A DNA stretch of 10,437 nucleotides from JALXCG01 sp026991065 [NCBI: Gemmatimonadota bacterium]. GTDB taxonomy: Bacteria; GCA-2686955. The notes below the pieces were generated by a model. That model saw only the letters and a program-made list of their open reading frames with translations. It had not been told where the DNA came from and ran no database searches. Position numbers and translations under genes: made by a program. The first letter of the stretch is position 1. Every line of letters begins with the position of its first letter. Location of the stretch: the NCBI GenBank assembly GCA_026991065.1, contig JALXCG010000837.1:1-10437 (forward strand), in the 5' to 3' direction. Positions 1,741 through 10,437 of this stretch are shown here, piece after piece.

Positions 1741-1783
1741 ATGTGCGAGTTGGATCTCCCTCCCCCTTCGAGAGGACCGATTG

Positions 1784-3214
1784 ATGCAGACGATCAAAAT
1801 CCGGATCATGGCTTCACTGGACTGGAGCATGCGCAAGGCCATGTTGGATTTCGTAAGTTACGCCGACCCTGTGATTCGCCATGACAACCAGGAATACCGC
1901 CTGGAGTTGGGACGGATCATGGCGGAGCCGATCGTCTGCGGCGCCGATCTCCGGCCTCAGGCGGACGTGGTGGTGGATCGCACCATTCACTGGAACGATT
2001 ACTACAAGTGCTGGGCACAGACCGCACAGAACTGCGGCGTGCGGATTCTCAACAACTCCCTGACCTTCGCCAATCTGGACAAGCACTCGACCTACGATCT
2101 CATGGCGCGTGCCATGCATCCGGCGGATCGTTTTCCGACCACCGTTCTCTTGCCTGACTTCCACCCCTACACGCCCGAGCAGTTTCGTGAGGACGAATGG
2201 CAGACTGAACAGGCCATTCGCAACCGTCACACGCGGTTCGGTTGGGATCCGGAGCGGTGTACCGTTGACCAGGCCAAGGTCGACGAGGAGTTGGAGTCGT
2301 CCCGGCGTTGGCGGCACAAAGGGCAGACCATCCGGGAGCAGTTCTATCCCGCCTACAACTACCTTGCGGATGTCATGGAACGGCATTTCCAGAACCGTTT
2401 TCCGGTGTACTTGAAGAAGGCGTTCGGTGGTGGCGGCAGCGATGTTTTCAAGATCCAGTCGCTGGATGAACTTTACCGTCGCTACGACGCGACCAACGGC
2501 AAGGTGTTTCATCTGCAGGAAGCGATTGAAGACTACGATGTCTTCATCCGCTGCATGGCGATCGGCCCCATGGTGATGCCGATGATCTTCCAGCCGGATC
2601 ACCCCCTGCATGAACACTACTCACCGGAAAAGCTGGTGATGGACCCCGCTGTGTATGCGCGTTTGCAGGCATACGTCCGTTTTGTCAATTCGTACCACCG
2701 CTGGACCTACAACTCCTACGAGTGTCTCGTTAAGGATGGTGCGATCCACCCGATCGACTTTGCCAACGCGTGCCCGGACAGCCACTTTACTTCGCTGCAC
2801 ACCCACTTTCCGTGGCTGATCAAGGCGCTGGTGCAGTGGCTCTCCTACGTCGGCGCGACCCGTAAGAACATGCGTGTGGATCTGGAGCAGGAAAAGTACA
2901 CGGAGGTCTTCAACGATCCGGATCTATCCGCCGAAGAGAAATTCGAATTCCACCGGCGCATGAGCGACGAGTATTTCGAAGTGGAGCGGTTCGAGGAGTT
3001 TTGCGCGATCAATTTCCCGGATATCGACGAGCAGATCATCGCCTTTTTCGAAGAGCGCATGGATTCGATCATTGAATACGCGATCGCTCATTCCGATTTT
3101 CCGGAGCGCGAAAGGCCACGTTTCTTTGCTCACTACAAGTCGATGATGGAGGGGATCTTTCGCCCCAACGCGAAGAAGCATCTGCAAACCGTGGTGCTGC
3201 GGGACCCGGTTTGA
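1784..3214 (+). CDS. ATP-grasp fold ligase of unknown substrate
   Basis: Predicted cytoplasmic carboxylate-amine (or thiol) ligase of the ATP-grasp superfamily, 476 residues. ATG 1784 is preferred over the adjoining TTG 1781 because AGAGGA at 1771-1776 is then 7 nt away. The pre-ATP region carries GVRILNNSLTFANLDKHSTY and FPTTVLLPDF, the usual approach to the ATP site. The glycine-rich loop is YLKKAFGGGGSDVF (K211, K212, G215-G218). The hinge is FHLQEAIEDYDVFIRCM (Q245, E246; D252 follows). The metal site is probably YECLVKDGAIHPIDFANACPD, with E313, D325 and N328. These elements in this order indicate an active enzyme. A long insertion at about 115-195 and a charged helical tail from about 360 to the end make it larger than RimK or graspetide ligases. 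I cannot name the product. The kinase-activator begins 51 bp downstream on the same strand. Confidence 0.83.
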   Translation: MQTIKIRIMASLDWSMRKAMLDFVSYADPVIRHDNQEYRLELGRIMAEPIVCGADLRPQADVVVDRTIHWNDYYKCWAQTAQNCGVRILNNSLTFANLDKHSTYDLMARAMHPADRFPTTVLLPDFHPYTPEQFREDEWQTEQAIRNRHTRFGWDPERCTVDQAKVDEELESSRRWRHKGQTIREQFYPAYNYLADVMERHFQNRFPVYLKKAFGGGGSDVFKIQSLDELYRRYDATNGKVFHLQEAIEDYDVFIRCMAIGPMVMPMIFQPDHPLHEHYSPEKLVMDPAVYARLQAYVRFVNSYHRWTYNSYECLVKDGAIHPIDFANACPDSHFTSLHTHFPWLIKALVQWLSYVGATRKNMRVDLEQEKYTEVFNDPDLSAEEKFEFHRRMSDEYFEVERFEEFCAINFPDIDEQIIAFFEERMDSIIEYAIAHSDFPERERPRFFAHYKSMMEGIFRPNAKKHLQTVVLRDPV

Positions 3215-3245
3215 CACAACGATGAATCCCGGGGCTCTCTTCCTG

Positions 3246-3264
3246 GCCGCGGAACCTCCGCGGC
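3246..3264 (+). promoter_or_regulatory. GC hairpin abutting the kinase-activator start codon
   Basis: GCCGCGG at 3246-3252 pairs perfectly with CCGCGGC at 3258-3264 around the 5-nt loop AACCT. The all-GC 7-bp stem ends one base before the ATG at 3266 and covers the place where a ribosome site should lie. No good Shine-Dalgarno is visible; GGAA at 3251-3254 is inside the stem and 11 nt away. In mRNA this should hinder initiation unless ribosomes arriving from upstream open it. Confidence 0.5.
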
Positions 3265-3265
3265 G

Positions 3266-6200
3266 ATGATCACGGTAGAGGTCGGCACTCGGCAGGTTGT
3301 CAAGCGCGCTCACGCGCCGGTGGCGCGACAAGCATGGCGCATGTTGCGCCGTGAGTATTGGCTGCTTGCCATGTTGCGCCCGGAGCGCGCGCCGCGGGCC
3401 ATCGACTTGTGTTTGGCGGCGGACGGCACGGCAACACTGACTCTGGAGCGGCTCCCCGGAACTTCATTGGATGCCGTTCTGGCCGCCGGAGATGCTACCG
3501 GAGCGCTACACGCCTTGGTAGATGTCGCCGTTGCTCTGCATGCACTGCATGTCAGCGGGTTTGTGCATGGAGACGTGGCTCCACGAAATGTTCTGGTGCA
3601 GGGGCAGGGAGCCACGGCGCGCGGCTGGCTGATCGATTTTGGCTTTGCCGCGCCCATCGGATCGCGGTCAAGACTGGTCCGCGGAACTCCCGCGACCATG
3701 GCGCCTGAATTGATGGCCGGTGGAAGCGTGAGCGCGGCGACCGATCTTTTTGCCTTTGGACGGCTGCTGACCGGGATTGTGGATGGAGGCTGGGATTTGC
3801 CGGCCTGGGCGGGGGAGGTAGGGAGCGACACTGCTGCGGAGCGCTCGGAAACGGCCAACTCCAACTTCACCGGCGCTCGTCGGTCCGCAGTCTTGGCGCT
3901 GGGCGCGAAACTCACCTCCGGCGGGCGACCGGCCGCTGGCCCGCACAACGCTCTGAGCGTGGCAGCAGAATTGCGTGCTGCCCTCAGGCTCGCCTCTGCC
4001 CCGGAGAGCACAGCCGTGGCGCCCCTGGCCCTCTGGATCCGTCGGCGGGCAGCATGGAAGCTGCTGCGCGCAATTGCTGGTCTCGCGCGGGGGAACTTGC
4101 GGGCTGGAGGCAGCGTTGTTATTACCGGAGGCGCTGGGTCTGGTCGCAGAACACTGCAGCAGGTGGCGGAGAGAGTTGCCCGATGTTTCGGAGTGGCGGT
4201 GCGGCGCGATGGCCGCGATCGCGCTCCCGGCGACGTGGAGATGGCGCCGGGGGAGGCGGCGCGGCCAGTGCTGATTCTTCTGGCGGAGCGTGAACCGGAT
4301 GCGTTGCAGCAACACCTGGTTCGGTGGCGTGAAGTGCCCAACACCCTTGGAATGGGCATTTCGGATCAGCCGCCCGGTGACCCCGCGACGACGTGGATTC
4401 AATTGGCGCCTCTCACCCGCATCGAGAGCGCGCGCCTTGGCGCTTTCATGCTGCGAACCCGACAACTGCCGGCGGCACTGGTCTCGCTCTCGGAACCGGG
4501 CCCAAGGCAGCCGATCGACTGGCGTCGGCGCCTCGACCGATGCGCGATCCGGCGTGGAAACGACGGCAATGTGCAGGGGCTGGTTCCGCTCCCGGCGCCC
4601 GCGAGCGAACCTCAGACTGTGCGCGAAGCCGTCTATTTGGGCTTTTGGGGTGAGATTGCGCCGCCTCCGCCGGAGCGCGAGGGTAGCAGTCGACTGGCGG
4701 CGGTTCTCGCGGAGTCGCTGCAGACGCGATCACCGGGAGAGATTGTGCGTTGGGGGGCTGCGCATGGACTCCAGCGGACCGAGATTCGGGCCATTGGCCT
4801 GCGGGTTGCGGATAGCCTGCTGGCCCCTGTTTCCTCCGCACCGGGAGAGGCGCTCGACGCCGGCGGTCGCCGGGCGCTTTGGATACTGCGCGAATTAGGC
4901 GGGCTGGAGAAGCGGATCAGCCTGGGGCTGGAATTGGCGCGGGGCGACCTCGCCGCGGGAAGGCCACGGGCGGCGGCGCTGATGGCGCGGTCACTGGTGC
5001 GGCACTCCCGCGCCACCGAGGAAAACCACTGGCAGGCACTGGTCATCGCCGTGCAGGCGGCGCGCCGGCTTGGCCACTGGCGGGCTGTCGTGCGTGGGGT
5101 TTCCCGGGCTCTGCCGCAGGCACCGGCGCGCTACGCCCATCTCTTGCGGCTGGAGCGGATTGAGGCGTTGACTCAGGGGGGCGATCTTGAGCGCGCCTGG
5201 CAAGAGGCCGCGGCGCTGCGCATTGAGGATGTGGATGCCTCTGCGGCACTGATTCTGGCACGCCTGGCGCAACTTCGAGGCGATCACGCACGAGCGCGCC
5301 AGTGGGCCGGCACCGCGTTCGCTTGCAGCCGGTCGCGGAACCGCTTGCAGGCCGCGAGGGCACTCAATGTTCTGGCCATCTCAGACCTGGCGGTGGGCCG
5401 CCTCCGACCTGCACGCCGGCGCCTGGAGAATGCGCTGCGGGTGCGCCGTCGCCTGCGCGACCTGTCGGGCATGGCTGCTTGCGAACTCCATCTCGCCGAA
5501 GTGGACGAGGCGGAGGGCCGGCGCGCCGATGCCCAGCGCCGCCTGCAACACTGCCTCGACCTGCGCCTCACGGTGGGGCAGGCCGCGGGTGCCGCCGATG
5601 CCCTGGAGCGCATCGGGCGTCTTGCCGCCCGCTCCGGCGATACCAAGGGCGCCCGCGATCAGTTCACCCGTGCATTGCGGATGCGTTTGCGCCTGGGTGA
5701 TCTTTCCGGGACCGCGGCCCTGCGCCACAACTTGGGCATCCTGGCCCTGCGCGATGGCGACGCCCAAGGGGCGCGCCGGGCCGCGCGCGATGCGGCGTCG
5801 ACCTTCTTGAAACTGGGGGATCGGGCGAACTCTCTTGCCGCGCGCGCGCAGGCCGCTCTTGCCCTGGAGGTTCTCGGCCGGCGCGGTCAGGCCATCAGCG
5901 AGATGCTGCGCGTCATGCACTTGCGCCGCAGCACGGGAGGCGCGAGAGAGTTGGCTGCTACCCTCAAACATCTGGCGGACCTGTTCGGCCGCGGGGGCCG
6001 AAACCTGCGCGCGGCCCGCCTGGCAGCCCTGGGAGCGGCCGTGAGCAGAGAAGATCCGGTGCGGCGGGCCCGGCTGGTTCTGCTGCAGGCGGACCATCTG
6101 CTGGCCGCTGGACGGTTCGTGGCCGCCCGCGCGGCGATTGCGTCGATCTCCACCTGGCCCTCGACGCTGGCGATTGGTCTGCAGCGCGATCTGTTGTGGG

Positions 6201-8185
6201 CGCGCCTTCAGGTCACAACTCCAGAACTCCCCTCGTTGGCGAATCGGGCGCGGGCCTGTGGTGAGAACGAAATCGCGCTGGCGGCGGCGCTCTATCTGGC
6301 GACCCGCGGGGAGCCTGACTTGGCCCGTACCGCTCTGCAGGGTGCTGCGCCGTCGCCCTCCGGCACACCGTCGCAGGTTGCCTACGACCTCGCTCGCGCC
6401 GAAGTGGAGATCAGCGCCGGCGCTTGGGAGCAGGCGGAGGTCAGGGCGGCGGCCGCGCGTCACAGCGCGGAGCGCCTCGCCATGCCGGTTGTGACCGCGC
6501 ATGCTCTCTTGCTGCAGGCAACTCTGTTGCTGCGCGCTGAACGGCACGCGGCGGCCCGAGTGCACCTTGATCAGGCGCACGAACTGCTTCGCGGTAGTTG
6601 CGCGGGGGTCAGCACCGCGGCGGATCCCGATCTTCTGCGTCGCATTGAGCGCACCCGTGCGCTCTGCAGTGGGGCCTCCAGCCCACGCCAGCACCTGGCG
6701 TTGACGCGCGTTGCCGAACTCCTGGGTTCGATCGAGGATCCAGAGAAACTCTTCCCCGCGATTCTCCGCGTTGTTCTGGACACTGTCGCGGCCGAGCGCG
6801 GCGTGCTGACCCTGCGCCAGGGAGAGAGTGACGATTTTGAAATCGCCGTTGCCCGCAACGTGGACTCGGCCGCTCTGGGGGATGTGCAGCGGATCTCGCG
6901 CACGATTCTCAGTCGGGCCTATCGCGAGGGAGCGGTTCTTCACTCCTCCAATGCGCTGCAGGATGAGGATTTCTCTGGACTGCGCTCGGTCCAGCTCTAC
7001 CGCATCGTCTCTTTCGCCTGTGCGCCATTGGTGGTTGGGGGGCGCATTGTCGGCACGATCTATCTTGACCGCGGCACTCGCGAAGGGGCTTTTTCCCATT
7101 CCGATCTGGCCTTCTTGGCCGCTTTGGCGAAGATCTCGGCGCTGGCCCTGGAGCATGCGCGCCTTCACAATCGACTGCGCATGCAGGCCGGGGCTCTGCG
7201 CCAGGAGGTGGAGACCCTTTATGGCCTCGGCAGTCTGGTGCAGAAGAGCCGCCCGATGGCGCGCCTGGTTGCCCGCGCCCGGCGTCTGGCTGATGCCGCG
7301 GTCACGGTGCTGATCGAAGGAGAGACCGGCGTCGGCAAGAGTGTTCTGGCGCGAGCCCTGCACTACTCGGGGCGCCGCTCCGGAAGGCCTTTTGTGGAAC
7401 TGGACTGTGGCGCGATCCCGCTGAACCTGGTGGAGAGCGAACTCTTTGGGCACGTGAAGGGTGCTTTTACCGGTGCGGACAGGGAGCGCGACGGTGTCTT
7501 TCAAGCCGCCGACGGGGGAACCCTGTTCCTCGATGAGATCGGCAATCTGCCCTTGGAGGGGCAGGCCAAGCTCTTGCGCGTTCTGCAGGATGGCCGGGTG
7601 CGGAGGGTCGGCGCGGAGCAGTCGATGCGCGTAGACGTGCGCTTGCTGTGCGCGAGCAACTCCACACTGGAAGAGGAGGTTGCCGCCGGGCGCTTCCGCG
7701 AGGACTTATACTTCAGAATCAACCCCGTAGTGCTGCGCATTCCGCCTCTGCGGGAACGCCGCGCCGACATCATCCCGCTGGCGGAACGTTTCTTGCAAGA
7801 AACAGCAGTGCGAATGGGGCTGAAACCGCCGCTCCTGACCGCGGAACTCCGTCGCATCCTGCGCCGTGCCCGCTGGCCCGGCAATGTCCGGCAACTTCAA
7901 AATGAGATCCACAGACTCTTGATACTCCATCCCACCGAAGTCTGGACTGAAGACCATCTGTCGGCCGACCTTGGCTTTGGCGGTGTGGTCTCCAAGAGCG
8001 TTTCATACTCCGGGCGCACCGTCGCCGCAGTGGAGAAAGAGATGCTCGTTGACGCTCTGAAACGTGCCCACTGGAATCGTCGCCGTGCCGCGGAACGTCT
8101 TGGGATGACCCACCGGCAAGTCTGCTACCGGATCGCCAAGTATGGTCTTACGCCACCCTCTCGGAAGCGGGGAGAACAACAATGA
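3266..8185 (+). CDS. Ser/Thr kinase - TPR - GAF - sigma-54 AAA+ activator fusion
   Basis: A 1639-residue one-piece signalling protein. Residues 1-170 are a eukaryotic-type Ser/Thr kinase: K13 in VVKR, E30 in the C-helix, HGDVAPRN (H101, D103, N108), DFG 124-126, GTP 140-142, APE 146-148 and D160. At 284-297 VVITGGAGSGRRTL is a Walker-A remnant with Arg for Lys. Helical repeats fill roughly 480-1130; those at 694-931 are TPRs with a near-exact 40-residue period. GAF is about 1155-1300, then a short coiled coil. The sigma-54 AAA+ domain has Walker A GETGVGKS 1352-1359, GAFTGA 1399-1404, Walker B GTLFLDEIG 1418-1426 and RFREDLYFRIN from 1476. A Fis-type HTH is at about 1586-1627 (NRRRAAERLGMTHRQVCYRI). 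By family it should remodel sigma-54 holoenzyme from a distant enhancer. There is no receiver domain, so control probably runs through the kinase, TPR and GAF parts. No in-frame alternative start exists after the stop codon at 3212-3214. Confidence 0.95.
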   Translation: MITVEVGTRQVVKRAHAPVARQAWRMLRREYWLLAMLRPERAPRAIDLCLAADGTATLTLERLPGTSLDAVLAAGDATGALHALVDVAVALHALHVSGFVHGDVAPRNVLVQGQGATARGWLIDFGFAAPIGSRSRLVRGTPATMAPELMAGGSVSAATDLFAFGRLLTGIVDGGWDLPAWAGEVGSDTAAERSETANSNFTGARRSAVLALGAKLTSGGRPAAGPHNALSVAAELRAALRLASAPESTAVAPLALWIRRRAAWKLLRAIAGLARGNLRAGGSVVITGGAGSGRRTLQQVAERVARCFGVAVRRDGRDRAPGDVEMAPGEAARPVLILLAEREPDALQQHLVRWREVPNTLGMGISDQPPGDPATTWIQLAPLTRIESARLGAFMLRTRQLPAALVSLSEPGPRQPIDWRRRLDRCAIRRGNDGNVQGLVPLPAPASEPQTVREAVYLGFWGEIAPPPPEREGSSRLAAVLAESLQTRSPGEIVRWGAAHGLQRTEIRAIGLRVADSLLAPVSSAPGEALDAGGRRALWILRELGGLEKRISLGLELARGDLAAGRPRAAALMARSLVRHSRATEENHWQALVIAVQAARRLGHWRAVVRGVSRALPQAPARYAHLLRLERIEALTQGGDLERAWQEAAALRIEDVDASAALILARLAQLRGDHARARQWAGTAFACSRSRNRLQAARALNVLAISDLAVGRLRPARRRLENALRVRRRLRDLSGMAACELHLAEVDEAEGRRADAQRRLQHCLDLRLTVGQAAGAADALERIGRLAARSGDTKGARDQFTRALRMRLRLGDLSGTAALRHNLGILALRDGDAQGARRAARDAASTFLKLGDRANSLAARAQAALALEVLGRRGQAISEMLRVMHLRRSTGGARELAATLKHLADLFGRGGRNLRAARLAALGAAVSREDPVRRARLVLLQADHLLAAGRFVAARAAIASISTWPSTLAIGLQRDLLWARLQVTTPELPSLANRARACGENEIALAAALYLATRGEPDLARTALQGAAPSPSGTPSQVAYDLARAEVEISAGAWEQAEVRAAAARHSAERLAMPVVTAHALLLQATLLLRAERHAAARVHLDQAHELLRGSCAGVSTAADPDLLRRIERTRALCSGASSPRQHLALTRVAELLGSIEDPEKLFPAILRVVLDTVAAERGVLTLRQGESDDFEIAVARNVDSAALGDVQRISRTILSRAYREGAVLHSSNALQDEDFSGLRSVQLYRIVSFACAPLVVGGRIVGTIYLDRGTREGAFSHSDLAFLAALAKISALALEHARLHNRLRMQAGALRQEVETLYGLGSLVQKSRPMARLVARARRLADAAVTVLIEGETGVGKSVLARALHYSGRRSGRPFVELDCGAIPLNLVESELFGHVKGAFTGADRERDGVFQAADGGTLFLDEIGNLPLEGQAKLLRVLQDGRVRRVGAEQSMRVDVRLLCASNSTLEEEVAAGRFREDLYFRINPVVLRIPPLRERRADIIPLAERFLQETAVRMGLKPPLLTAELRRILRRARWPGNVRQLQNEIHRLLILHPTEVWTEDHLSADLGFGGVVSKSVSYSGRTVAAVEKEMLVDALKRAHWNRRRAAERLGMTHRQVCYRIAKYGLTPPSRKRGEQQ

Positions 8186-9174
8186 AGGCGATGTCGCGAA
8201 TTCTGCTCCTGCTGATCACTCTGGTGGCGGCGCCTTTCAGCGCTTCGCGCGCCGCCCAATCCCAGGCGCCACAAGCCGATTCCCCGGCCACTGTTGCGAA
8301 CAGTCTCACCGTGGTGATCCATGAGATCATGTTCGACCCGCCGGATACTCTGGGCAGTGACGATGACTATGAATGGATCGAACTTTTTAATACCACCGGC
8401 GCGACCATCGATCTGAGCGGCTGGACACTCAACGGTGCACCGCTCACGGGGGTTATCGAGCCCTATCGCTATCTGATTTGCGCTCGTCAGGATCTCTCGG
8501 ACCCGGATGGAGACGGAGCCTATTTCTCAGCTTTCTACAACCTTGACCACGGCTACGACCTGAACACACCGGTGCTGGACATGGGCAATGCCGAGTGGTC
8601 TTTGCAGGGGCCGGAGTTGGCGGTTGTGCTGCGGGATGGGCTGGAGCAAGTCGTGGATTCGGTGAGCTTTGACCCGGTGCCCGGGGGTGACGGGGATGGC
8701 TCGACACTGGAGCGTGTTGTGGCGCTGCTACCGGGAACGCCCGAGAACTTCGCGGTCAGTTCTCCGGCGGACCGCCACGGATCTCCCGAGGGGGAGAACT
8801 CCACCTCACCCGTGGTGATCGAGGTGTCTTTGCCCCCCGGGCCGTTTTACCGTGGCGATGTGGTCACCATCTCCGAGTCGATTCTCAATCGCAGTTCCGA
8901 GCCCCAAACGATATCGATCTGGCGTGTGATCCAACTGCCGAACTCGTTGCGCCGTGCCTTCAATCCTCCCGGTCTCCCGACCCACCTGATCGTACCCCCG
9001 AATTTTGAATTTCAGGCCGAATCCGAGGTGACGGTGCCGGATCAGCTTCCTCTGGGCGCCTATGGCTACCAGGCGATTATCGGGCAGGGGGAGCAGTCGG
9101 CCGGGTCGGACTGGGAAGAGTTTATCGTGCACTCCAACGACCAGGTGCGCAGCGGGAGTGCGACAGGCTCTTAG
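8182..9174 (+). CDS. Exported lamin-tail-domain (LTD) protein
   Basis: 330-residue exported protein of unknown role. The ATG overlaps the activator stop codon as ATGA, and GGGGAG at 8169-8174 lies 7 nt upstream inside the activator gene, so translation is probably coupled. A Sec signal peptide covers residues 1-24 or so (KAMSR, a hydrophobic core, then SASRA). Residues 44-180 are a lamin-tail domain, an Ig-like beta-sandwich: VVIHEIMFDPP, YEWIELFNTTGATIDLSGW, GNAEWSLQGPELAVVLRDG and a DGDGSTLERV end, followed by the usual LPGTPENF and HGSPEGEN tail. In bacteria such domains occur in secreted nucleases, adhesins and other surface proteins. No nuclease or other catalytic motif is seen. Residues 210-320 look like a second beta-sandwich (YRGDVVTISESILNRS). 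There is no C-terminal sorting signal. It is perhaps an envelope partner or output of the coupled regulator, which is inference from position. Confidence 0.9.
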   Translation: MKAMSRILLLLITLVAAPFSASRAAQSQAPQADSPATVANSLTVVIHEIMFDPPDTLGSDDDYEWIELFNTTGATIDLSGWTLNGAPLTGVIEPYRYLICARQDLSDPDGDGAYFSAFYNLDHGYDLNTPVLDMGNAEWSLQGPELAVVLRDGLEQVVDSVSFDPVPGGDGDGSTLERVVALLPGTPENFAVSSPADRHGSPEGENSTSPVVIEVSLPPGPFYRGDVVTISESILNRSSEPQTISIWRVIQLPNSLRRAFNPPGLPTHLIVPPNFEFQAESEVTVPDQLPLGAYGYQAIIGQGEQSAGSDWEEFIVHSNDQVRSGSATGS

Positions 9175-9197: not shown

Positions 9198-9219
9198 AAG
9201 TTCACAATTTTGTGAACTT
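9198..9219. promoter_or_regulatory. 22-bp palindrome, candidate enhancer or operator
   Basis: Arms AAGTTCACAA (9198-9207) and TTGTGAACTT (9210-9219) are perfect inverted repeats around TT. The site is AT-rich within GC-rich surroundings and lies outside the genes. It sits 111 bp upstream of the -24 element at 9331, about 140 bp before the predicted transcription start; sigma-54 activators commonly bind 80-200 bp upstream. A Fis-type HTH dimer, or an unrelated repressor, could bind it. As RNA it could form a 9-bp hairpin, but no T-tract follows. Confidence 0.55.
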
Positions 9220-9329: not shown

Positions 9330-9346
9330 CTGGCACATTTCCTGCG
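9330..9346 (+). promoter_or_regulatory. Candidate sigma-54 (-24/-12) promoter
   Basis: CTGGCACATTTCCTGCG matches the sigma-54 pattern TGGCAC-N5-TTGC with all six bases of the -24 element and three of four of the -12 element. The invariant GG (9332-9333) and GC (9344-9345) are exactly 12 bases apart. Transcription would start near 9357, leaving about 140 nt of leader before the Cys-rich protein gene at 9497. It is the only good match I found in the non-coding parts of the window, and the window itself encodes a sigma-54 activator. Confidence 0.5.
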
Positions 9347-9496: not shown

Positions 9497-9880
9497 ATGT
9501 TGCGTTTCTTGATTGCCAGTGCGGCTGCTATGACTCTTGCCGCTTCCGCCAATGCTCAGTGTGTGTCCTGCAGCATCGTTCCCGATGCCGACTGCGTGAT
9601 GCCCGGCAGCGCGCTGAATGTGCAAGTGTGCGTGATTAACGATTGCGAAGAGTTCGTGCGCGTCTCGGCGGATCTGGTCGCGAATGCTCCGGGGGGCGAT
9701 GTCTACGACATCCAGAACAAGTTTTTCTGGGCACCTCCGGGCGAGAACTGCGTCGACCTCGCGCTCTTCGTCCCCGATTTTGTCGACCTGGGCGACTACG
9801 ACCTGGAAGTGACCCTCACTGAAGGCGACAACACGAGCACTTGCAATGCCGCGGTGACTGTCGCGGAAGATTGCGGCTGA
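9497..9880 (+). CDS. Small exported acidic protein with eight cysteines
   Basis: 127-residue protein that I do not recognise. ATG 9497 is chosen because GGAG at 9487-9490 is 6 nt upstream and a clean Sec signal peptide begins there: MLRFLIAS, an alanine-rich core, and cleavage after ANA at residue 20. The GTG at 9476 and the ATG at 9485 would put charged residues before it and lack a ribosome site. The mature chain of about 107 residues carries eight Cys (22, 25, 33, 45, 50, 85, 116, 126), enough for four disulfides. It has roughly 19 acidic against two basic residues. The body looks beta-rich (ALNVQVCVIND, YDLEVTLTEGDNT), suggesting a small Ig-like fold. It has no lipobox, membrane anchor or catalytic motif. 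It is probably periplasmic or secreted and may be controlled by the sigma-54 promoter candidate at 9330. The high aspartate content could bind divalent cations, which is speculation. Confidence 0.78.
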   Translation: MLRFLIASAAAMTLAASANAQCVSCSIVPDADCVMPGSALNVQVCVINDCEEFVRVSADLVANAPGGDVYDIQNKFFWAPPGENCVDLALFVPDFVDLGDYDLEVTLTEGDNTSTCNAAVTVAEDCG

Positions 9881-9946: not shown

Positions 9947-10437
9947 CTACGCTTGCTGGTCGATCCACTCCCGCATCCATTTTTCCAATACCCCCAATGG
10001 CACGGCACCGATACCCAGAAGGCGGTCATGGAAACCGCGCAGGTCGAAACCACTGCCGAGCGCGGCTTCCGCGTCGCGTCGCATCCGGGTGATGCTTAAC
10101 TCGCCGATCTTGTAGGAGAGAGCCTGCCCGGCCATGCAGATGTAGCGTTCCACCTCGGCCGCAACATTCGCCGCCGAGAGCGCGGTTCCCTGAGCCATGT
10201 ATTCGATCGCCTGCTCACGGCTCCAGCCCTTGGAGTGGATGCCGGTATCTACCACCAACCGCGCGGCGCGCCACAACTCCAGGGTCAAGCGTCCAAACTC
10301 CGAATAGAGCTCCTGGTAGAAACCGAGTTCTTTGGGGAGCCGCTCGGAATAGAGCGCCCAACCTTCGACGTAAGCGGTGAACATTCCATGCTTGCGGAAA
10401 TCGGGCAGGTTGCTGATCTCCTGCGCCAGCGCGATCT
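9947..10437 (-). CDS. DUF885 family protein, C-terminal part (5' partial)
   Basis: The last 162 residues of a DUF885 protein read on the minus strand; the frame is open to the window edge, so the ATG at 10384 is internal. The visible segments follow the family order: IALAQEISNLPDFRKHG, AYVEGWALYSERL, ELWRAARLVVDTGIH, WSREQAIEYM, a GQALSYKIGEL segment and FDLRGFHDRLL. DUF885 proteins are usually about 550-600 residues and exported, and are regarded as metallopeptidase-like; the usual histidine-rich site should lie just upstream, outside the window. The substrate is unknown. Met replaces the usual Gly in HGGFTAY, a minor difference. The gene is convergent with the Cys-rich protein gene and unlikely to share its control. 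Confidence 0.92.
   Translation of the reverse strand, partial: IALAQEISNLPDFRKHGMFTAYVEGWALYSERLPKELGFYQELYSEFGRLTLELWRAARLVVDTGIHSKGWSREQAIEYMAQGTALSAANVAAEVERYICMAGQALSYKIGELSITRMRRDAEAALGSGFDLRGFHDRLLGIGAVPLGVLEKWMREWIDQQA

What the first reader, a model, noticed from the sequence alone, without database searches (positions are those of the whole stretch)
3266..8185. Kinase, TPR, GAF and sigma-54 activator in one polypeptide
Sigma-54 activators normally receive signals through a receiver, PAS/GAF or FHA domain. Here an N-terminal Ser/Thr kinase with all core catalytic residues is joined covalently to an activator with intact Walker A, Walker B, GAFTGA and Fis-type HTH. The kinase could phosphorylate its own TPR, GAF or AAA+ part, making a one-component phospho-switch for sigma-54 transcription. 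Similar architectures occur in databases, but I know of no mechanistic study.
Basis: partly seen in the sequence, partly recalled or inferred. Interest (0 to 1): 0.75.

Follow-up and report, generated by a model that had tools for sequence, protein, structure and literature searches.

The report
Kinase-like domain fused to sigma-54 activator
A single bacterial protein joins a kinase-like domain, a hidden ATPase-like domain, repeat and sensor domains and a gene-switching motor; similar fusions occur in many bacteria, but in this one the kinase and the hidden ATPase have altered key parts, so it may well sense and switch genes without phosphorylating itself.

Summary
"All core catalytic residues" is overstated. 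From its only standard start the protein begins after the Gly-rich loop (in-frame codons just upstream spell GRGTSA, perhaps a remnant), and the catalytic-loop Lys is Ala (HGDVAPRN). K13, E30, D103, N108 and D124 are kept. The hidden domain has lost Walker A Lys (GGAGSGRRT) and Walker B Asp. Such fusions are not unique: at least 25 of 386 sampled genomes carry one. Of 32 fusions, 18 keep a complete kinase motif set, so a phospho-switch is plausible for the group but less so here. In the sister genome the same front end carries histidine-kinase or GGDEF outputs. Against the one ortholog, GAF (79%) and AAA+ (62%) are better conserved than the kinase C-lobe tail (27%) and NTPase (36%). Best reading: a GAF-sensing sigma-54 activator with a mainly non-catalytic regulatory arm. 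An active kinase without a Gly-loop, as in Toxoplasma WNG1, is not excluded.

The parts
3266..8185 (+). 1639-aa fusion protein: kinase-like / degenerate P-loop NTPase / TPR / GAF / sigma-54 AAA+ / Fis HTH
3215..3265 (+). 17 in-frame codons before the ATG, no ATG/GTG/TTG; would read HNDESRGSLPGRGTSAA, possible Gly-loop remnant
3266..3991 (+). kinase-like domain, about residues 1-242; begins after the Gly-rich loop; K13, E30, D103, N108, D124 kept, D+2 Lys replaced by Ala-105
   Evidence: Pfam, family profile and motif table, AlphaFold model and structure comparison
3302..3304 (+). VAIK-type Lys-13 (QVVK)
3566..3589 (+). catalytic loop H101-G-D-V-A-P-R-N108
3635..3643 (+). DFG, D124
4001..4615 (+). 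degenerate P-loop NTPase of AAA_16/STAND type, residues 246-450
   Evidence: aligned to the AAA_16 region of relatives; model and fold comparison
4127..4153 (+). altered Walker A GGAGSGRRT, residues 288-296 (Lys to Arg); ortholog GPAGSGRRS
4265..4300 (+). altered Walker B PVLILLAEREPD, residues 334-345 (Asp to Ala-340)
4943..6655 (+). TPR region, about residues 560-1130; limits approximate
   Evidence: TPR_12, three stretches; helices towards the end of the 1-600 model
6737..7150 (+). GAF domain, residues 1158-1295; 79% identical to the ortholog over 1140-1310
7238..7735 (+). sigma-54 AAA+ domain, residues 1325-1490: GETGVGKS, GAFTGA, TLFLDE, FREDLYFRIN
7751..7972 (+). AAA+ lid, residues 1496-1569, with WPGNVRQL
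8021..8143 (+). Fis-type HTH (HTH_8), residues 1586-1626
8182..9174 (+). Lamin-tail-domain (LTD) gene, start codon overlaps the fusion's stop; follows the fusion in G001 too

Best explanation
This is a sigma-54 enhancer-binding protein whose signal input is a large regulatory arm: kinase-like domain, STAND-type NTPase-like domain, TPR and GAF. In this member the two N-terminal ATP-using domains look degenerate and most likely act as non-catalytic modules: an allosteric or protein-docking pseudokinase, and a STAND-like scaffold that can no longer cycle nucleotide normally. The GAF domain is probably the main ligand sensor, and the intact AAA+ domain remodels sigma-54 RNA polymerase at promoters bound through the Fis-type HTH. 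Shown by sequence: the architecture, the altered catalytic loop and Walker motifs, the Gly-loop missing after the only standard start, the intact sigma-54 motor, and the high conservation of GAF. Inferred: non-catalytic function of the front end, GAF as the sensor, and restraint of AAA+ assembly by the arm until signal binds. The fusion ancestor in this phylum probably had a Gly-loop, so its loss here is secondary.
For: No Gly-loop after the only standard start. Catalytic-loop Lys to Ala. The first aligned residue of the kinase model is residue 1, against residue 200 of IRAK4 (Z 19.4, rmsd 2.5 over 208 residues); that IRAK4's Gly-loop is at 193-198 is recalled. NTPase-like domain lacks Walker A Lys and Walker B Asp, while 22 of 31 fusions read keep the Walker A Lys. 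In the two genomes of the phylum 0 of 4 sigma-54-fused kinases with a readable active site keep the complete motif set, against 8 of the 16 other kinase domains in the table: a weak contrast. Identity to the ortholog G001:C135: GAF 79%, AAA+ 62%, TPR 50% and 37%, NTPase 36%, kinase C-lobe tail 27%. P0001, its ortholog, G001 C174, the cut-off C782 and G000 C244 form one clade (SH-aLRT 99); C174 and C244 have sequence in the Gly-loop columns, P0001 has none. rpoN present.
Against: K13, E30, D103, N108 and D124 are all kept, which is more than drift need keep. WNG1 shows that a Gly-loop is not strictly needed (PMC6442604). In-frame codons just upstream spell GRGTSA, so a Gly-loop-like segment may be translated from an unseen start. 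Kinases of these genomes not known to be fused to sigma-54 are often degenerate too (8 of 16, for example C468, C736, C201), so degeneration is no mark of this output. The ortholog's contig starts inside the kinase C-lobe, so conservation of its active site could not be measured. Low identity in kinase and NTPase may be ordinary for fast-evolving sensor parts. The ortholog's own AAA+ has GAFTDA and its contig lacks lid and HTH, so constraint on its output is doubtful.
Confidence: 0.46

Rival explanations
1. One reading: the kinase is active and phosphorylates its own TPR, GAF or AAA+ part, giving a one-component phospho-switch for sigma-54 transcription.
For: K13, E30, D103, N108, D124 and the APE Glu kept; 18 of 32 fusions have complete motif sets, so the ancestral arrangement was probably catalytic (inference). 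WNG1 is active without a Gly-loop and prefers Val at the Ala of VAIK (PMC6442604); this protein also has Val there (QVVK), as 7 of 33 kinases in the table do. Arg-107 at D+4 is where tyrosine kinases place a compensating Arg (recalled). A Gly-loop-like GRGTSA lies in frame just upstream.
Against: Catalytic-loop Lys lost, Gly-loop missing after the only standard start; neighbouring NTPase also degenerate. Arg at D+4 also occurs in L117, whose HRD Asp is gone, so it may be chance.
Confidence: 0.22
2. The kinase and NTPase remnants are vestigial: the working part is TPR-GAF-sigma-54, and the N-terminal 450 residues are decaying without a role.
For: Kinase and NTPase both altered; 27% and 36% identity to the ortholog in those parts; a two-gene arrangement also exists (G000:C173, kinase-like frame overlapping a GAF-sigma-54 frame).
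Against: The frame is open through all 1639 codons and the kinase core folds with pLDDT of about 80-96 in the model; K13, D103, N108 and D124 survive; the NTPase region aligns over most of its length in both genomes.
Confidence: 0.2
3. Start-site or assembly artefact: a Gly-loop exists in the organism's protein but the start is hidden by an unusual start codon or an error in this metagenome assembly; or translation starts later, at Met-26, without K13.
For: Draft genome of 902 contigs, 84% complete. No clear ribosome-binding site seen by eye before ATG-3266. In-frame upstream codons spell GRGTSA.
Against: No ATG, GTG or TTG in those codons; their codon-position G+C (0.71, 0.71, 0.65) differs from codons 1-25 (0.76, 0.52, 0.72) and from the rest of the gene, though samples are tiny; Lys-to-Ala and the Walker changes do not depend on the start.
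Confidence: 0.12

Closest known systems
Bacterial enhancer-binding proteins (NtrC/NifA/NorR type sigma-54 activators)
   Same: Sigma54_activat E 1.3e-65, GAFTGA, lid, Fis HTH; best NCBIfam match is to NifA (E 1.5e-102, but 344 bits against a cut-off of 529), which also has GAF-AAA+-HTH order (recalled)
   Different: About 1140 residues of kinase-like, NTPase-like and TPR sequence in front of the GAF domain
PknK of Mycobacterium tuberculosis and MalT-type STAND proteins
   Same: Kinase joined to a STAND NTPase; MalT-type proteins link a STAND core and TPR sensor to DNA binding (PMC4381067 and PMC6468293, passages read)
   Different: PknK has no sigma-54 output (recalled); here the Walker A Lys and Walker B Asp are missing
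HstK (Alr2258) of Anabaena PCC 7120, kinase and histidine kinase in one chain
   Same: Ser/Thr kinase and histidine kinase domains in one chain (PMC2176072, passages and a reference title); a protein Pkinase-AAA_16-TPR-GAF-HisKA-HATPase lies in the sister genome (G001:C17)
   Different: Output is a histidine kinase, not a sigma-54 activator
Kinase plus TPR plus GGDEF protein (Clostridium thermocellum gi 23020879)
   Same: Kinase and TPR joined to another output (PMC1262709, passages); a Pkinase-TPR-GAF-GGDEF protein is in G001:C221
   Different: Diguanylate cyclase output
WNG kinases of Toxoplasma (WNG1/ROP35, BPK1)
   Same: No Gly-loop or beta-1, VAIK Lys and alpha-C Glu kept, Val in VAIK (PMC6442604, passages)
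   Different: Eukaryotic secreted kinases; WNG1 shown active, BPK1 a pseudokinase; no kinship claimed beyond the kinase fold

Membership tests
sigma-54 enhancer-binding protein | AAA+ core with Walker A, GAFTGA, Walker B and Arg-finger region | tested here: met
sigma-54 enhancer-binding protein | C-terminal Fis-type HTH | tested here: met
   HTH_8 1586-1626, E 1.1e-11
sigma-54 enhancer-binding protein | organism has rpoN | tested here: met
   Sigma54_DBD E 1.6e-64 in G000
sigma-54 enhancer-binding protein | activates a -24/-12 promoter | not testable with these tools
   13 sites with up to 2 mismatches in the window against 5.29 expected, mostly inside genes; the site at 9331 cannot be told from chance
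active Hanks-type protein kinase | Gly-rich loop | tested here: inconclusive
   absent after ATG-3266, the only standard start; GRGTSA in frame just upstream, no start codon there
active Hanks-type protein kinase | VAIK Lys, alpha-C Glu, HRD Asp, Asn, DFG Asp | tested here: met
   K13, E30, D103, N108, D124
active Hanks-type protein kinase | catalytic-loop Lys (D+2) | tested here: not met
   Ala-105
active Hanks-type protein kinase | phosphotransfer | not testable with these tools
   needs protein
STAND NTPase | P-loop NTPase fold | tested here: met
   model mean pLDDT 75.1; best Z 11.4, rmsd 4.5 over 189 residues, to Cdc6 1fnn; Apaf-1, Dark and NLR chains also listed
STAND NTPase | Walker A Lys and Walker B Asp | tested here: not met
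   GGAGSGRRT; LILLAE
STAND NTPase | AAA_16 profile match (E up to 0.001) | tested here: not met
   20 of 28 fusions match PF13191, this one does not
kinase-NTPase-TPR-GAF-sigma-54 fusion group (my grouping) | all domains in one frame, as in other genomes | tested here: met
   Pkinase, Sigma54_activat and GAF in 28 of 28 scanned, TPR_12 in 27 of 28

The most novel reading that the evidence does not exclude
A bacterial WNG-like kinase: without a canonical Gly-loop, and with an Ala/Arg catalytic loop arranged as in tyrosine kinases (HGDVAPRN), it still binds ATP and phosphorylates its own GAF or AAA+ part, so one polypeptide couples a reshaped kinase site to sigma-54 promoter opening.
Probability: 0.13. 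Interest if true: 0.75.

Novelty: new variant of a known kind. Interest (0 to 1): 0.42.

Why it matters
A kinase-STAND-TPR-GAF front end welded to a sigma-54 motor is present in at least 25 of 386 sampled genomes, yet none of the rows listed by my library searches is a study of one. The group offers natural contrasts, with complete-motif kinases in 18 of 32 and altered ones such as this. The question whether Ser/Thr phosphorylation or mere allostery by a kinase fold gates a bacterial AAA+ activator can therefore be tested directly by comparing members and chimeras.

Tried and rejected
Tried: (a) A close-relative scan of named genomes with the full protein found none; a scan with the GAF alignment returned 3 loci: two contigs with the numbers and lengths of G001 C174 and C135 (Gemmatimonadetes bacterium ARS67, NYZA01) and one from a Spirochaetales MAG that I did not follow up. 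(b) A -24/-12 promoter scan: 13 sites with up to 2 mismatches in the window against 5.29 expected (0 of 200 shuffles reach 13), but most lie inside genes on the coding strand; the one ahead of the gene at 9497 (site at 9331) is not aligned with the G001 site, and L053 had 2 against 1.55 expected, so I claim no target. (c) Coupled loss of kinase and Walker motifs: 15/2 against 7/7, Fisher p 0.044, but related rows are not independent; phylogenetic pairs were too few (median p 0.625), so no claim. (d) Number of fusion origins: with corrected labels, well-supported branches do not force more than one; the first run suggested more because two truncated copies of known fusions had been labelled non-fused. 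(e) The missing N-terminus of the G001 ortholog was sought and not found on another contig. (f) Kdo/WaaP and ABC1 kinase matches are weaker than Pkinase and were taken as signs of divergence. I lowered the main explanation from 0.50 to 0.46 and raised the active-kinase (0.20 to 0.22) and start-artefact (0.08 to 0.12) rivals for that reason. The same draft contrasted 0 of 4 with 4 of 4 kinases chosen by me; the full table gives 0 of 4 against 8 of 16.

Rows dropped: of 36 regions fetched (all rows outside G000 and G001 with an open frame over 1000 aa), 28 were used. L111 (the frame I recovered was 534 aa, while the search had listed 1766; not resolved), L123 and L126 (cut by contig ends) and L127-L131 (no kinase found) were set aside. 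With P0001, C244, C412 and G001 C174 this gives 32. L106 was left out of alignments A3-A5, L124 out of A5, and L106, L116, L117, L125 out of the Pfam scan. The kinase profile was trained on 18 sequences, 17 of them among these fusions, so their E-values there are inflated; P0001 was not among them. Only the two best candidates per genome were scored, so 25 of 386 is a lower bound. In the 16 other kinase domains of the phylum, C441 and C168 are cut by contig ends (their outputs are unknown) and C76 shows only its C-terminal part.

Full report
WHAT IS THERE. The frame 3266-8185 (+) encodes 1639 aa without interruption. Pfam finds Pkinase, TPR_12, GAF, Sigma54_activat, AAA_lid_14 and HTH_8 in that order. 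The sigma-54 motor is intact by motif: GETGVGKS 1352, GAFTGA 1399, TLFLDE 1419, RFREDLYFR 1476, WPGNVRQL 1537. The genome is a draft of 4.14 Mb in 902 contigs, from a phylum in which only two genomes are held, G000 (this one) and G001. A scan of named genomes returned contigs of the MAG Gemmatimonadetes bacterium ARS67 (NYZA01) that match G001's contigs C135 and C174 in number and length. One rpoN match was found in each genome.

THE KINASE. K13, E30, H101-G-D103, N108, D124 and the APE are present. Two elements are not. First, the Gly-rich loop: the Pfam match starts at profile position 43 of 263, and a profile built from 18 related kinases, this one not among them, matches from position 45 of 324 at E 5.5e-34. 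Between the stop at 3212-3214 and the ATG lie 17 in-frame codons without ATG, GTG or TTG. They would read HNDESRGSLPGRGTSAA: GRGTSA lies about where a Gly-loop should be and resembles CGRGGSSAV of L103. The likeness is suggestive only: GxG at that place in 33 of 1000 shuffles, mean alignment score reached in 66 of 1000, best score in 468 of 1000, and the profile match does not extend into it. It may be a remnant of a lost longer N-terminus or point to a hidden start. The AlphaFold model of residues 1-600 (mean pLDDT 79.6) has a kinase fold. VIA-align aligns it from residue 1, with residue 200 of IRAK4, Z 19.4, rmsd 2.5 over 208 residues; that IRAK4's Gly-loop is at 193-198 is recalled. Second, the catalytic-loop Lys is Ala-105 (HGDVAPRN). 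HGD instead of HRD means little here, because many fusions with complete sets also read HGD.

THE HIDDEN DOMAIN. Residues 246-450 align with the AAA_16 region of relatives. The Walker A Lys is kept in 22 of 31 fusions read; here the motif reads GGAGSGRRT, and GPAGSGRRS in the ortholog. The Walker B stretch reads PVLILLAE, with Ala-340 where relatives often have an Asp. Modelled alone (mean pLDDT 75.1), it matches P-loop AAA+/STAND folds: Cdc6 1fnn at Z 11.4, rmsd 4.5 over 189 residues, with Apaf-1, Dark and plant NLR chains in the lists. So both N-terminal ATP-using domains are altered, while the C-terminal one is intact.

HOW COMMON. A profile of the phylum's fusions was run over 386 genomes, two candidates scored in each. 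All 36 rows outside G000 and G001 with a frame over 1000 aa were fetched; 28 hold kinase-like and sigma-54 domains in one frame, from 23 genomes. With G000 and G001 that is at least 25 of 386. Twenty-four of these 28 plus four from the phylum were scanned with Pfam: Pkinase, GAF and Sigma54_activat in 28 of 28, TPR_12 in 27, HTH_8 in 23 (some are cut by contig ends), AAA_16 in 20. Kinase motifs in 32 fusions: VAIK Lys 31, HRD Asp 30, catalytic Lys 27, Asn 26, DFG Asp 31, at least two Gly of the loop 22, complete set 18. This member is among the 8 that lack one or more of the five residues counted there (VAIK Lys, HRD Asp, catalytic-loop Lys, Asn, DFG Asp), with C244, C412, L114, L115, L116, L117 and L121.

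MODULE AND HISTORY. In G001 a like front end carries other outputs: AAA_16-TPR-GAF-HisKA/HATPase (C17), TPR-GAF-GGDEF (C221), or no further Pfam match (C228, C130). Of the 20 kinase domains found in the two genomes, the four fused to sigma-54 in one frame with a readable active site have 0 complete motif sets; G001 C174 misses only the Gly count. The other 16 have 8 complete (C441, C583, C17, C213, C221, C228, C130, C79). The contrast is weak and degenerate kinases are common in these genomes anyway. In G000:C173 a kinase-like open frame of 1011 aa overlaps a separate GAF-sigma-54 open frame by 29 bases, a split form. In a tree of the GAF-AAA+ part, P0001, its ortholog, G001 C174, the cut-off C782 and C244 form a clade with SH-aLRT 99. 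C174 and C244 have sequence in the Gly-loop columns, so the loss here is probably secondary.

CONSTRAINT. Identity to the ortholog G001:C135 is 27% in the kinase C-lobe tail, 36% in the NTPase, 50% and 37% in the TPR halves, 79% in GAF and 62% in the AAA+ core. The ortholog's contig starts within the C-lobe, so its active site is unseen. Its AAA+ has GAFTDA and then runs into the downstream LTD gene out of frame, so lid and HTH are missing in that assembly. This may be a real deletion or a misassembly, and it weakens the argument from AAA+ conservation.

MECHANISM. Best supported: a GAF-sensing sigma-54 activator with a large arm in which kinase-like and STAND-like domains act mainly by shape and binding (0.46). 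That STAND proteins with TPR sensors switch by nucleotide-driven opening is from PMC4381067 and PMC6468293 (abstract starts and passages); with the Walker positions lost, such cycling is unlikely here (inference).

PRINT. PMC1262709, PMC2877116 and PMC2176072 (passages) mention a kinase-TPR-GGDEF protein, TPR and GAF as common partners of bacterial kinases, and HstK; the word sigma was found 0 times in the first and third, and once, in a reference title, in the second. Ten library searches showed no study of a kinase-sigma-54 fusion among the rows listed; lists were capped and subscription journals are mostly not held.

Noticed in passing
L053 (G001:C135) around 3930-3960: The ortholog's sigma-54 domain reads GAFTDA and the contig runs from FRINTIP directly into the LTD protein in another frame: a deletion of lid, HTH and LTD start, or a misassembly.
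   Followed up: partly
8182-9174, 9497-9880, 9947-10435 and L053: Gene order fusion, LTD protein, small secreted-like protein, DUF885-like protein (reverse strand) is the same in both genomes; the LTD start overlaps the fusion stop.
   Followed up: partly
9200-9217; L053 4761-4778: An inverted repeat GTTCAC-N6-GTGAAC lies near the end of the LTD gene in both genomes: after its stop in the window, inside the reading frame before the stop in G001. Possibly a terminator or operator.
   Followed up: no
9331-9346: GG-N10-GC site two mismatches from the sigma-54 consensus, ahead of the small secreted-like gene; cannot be told from chance.
   Followed up: partly
1781-3214: ATP-grasp-like protein with no Pfam match at E 0.1 and only a weak NCBIfam RimK match (E 6.7e-5, under cut-off), directly upstream in the same direction.
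   Followed up: no
L160 (G000:C173) 173-1852 and 1824-4856: Split version: a kinase-like open frame of 1011 aa overlapping a GAF-sigma-54 open frame of 560 aa.
   Followed up: partly
L165 (G001:C5) 1930-3489 and 3584-5305: A sigma-54 activator gene followed by a pseudokinase (HGCLDIDTV, GFG) with a Roadblock/LC7 domain.
   Followed up: no
L116, L117 (G340): Two fusions in one genome whose kinase-like domains have lost the HRD Asp (HTA, HCG) while the Walker A of the NTPase is intact.
   Followed up: no
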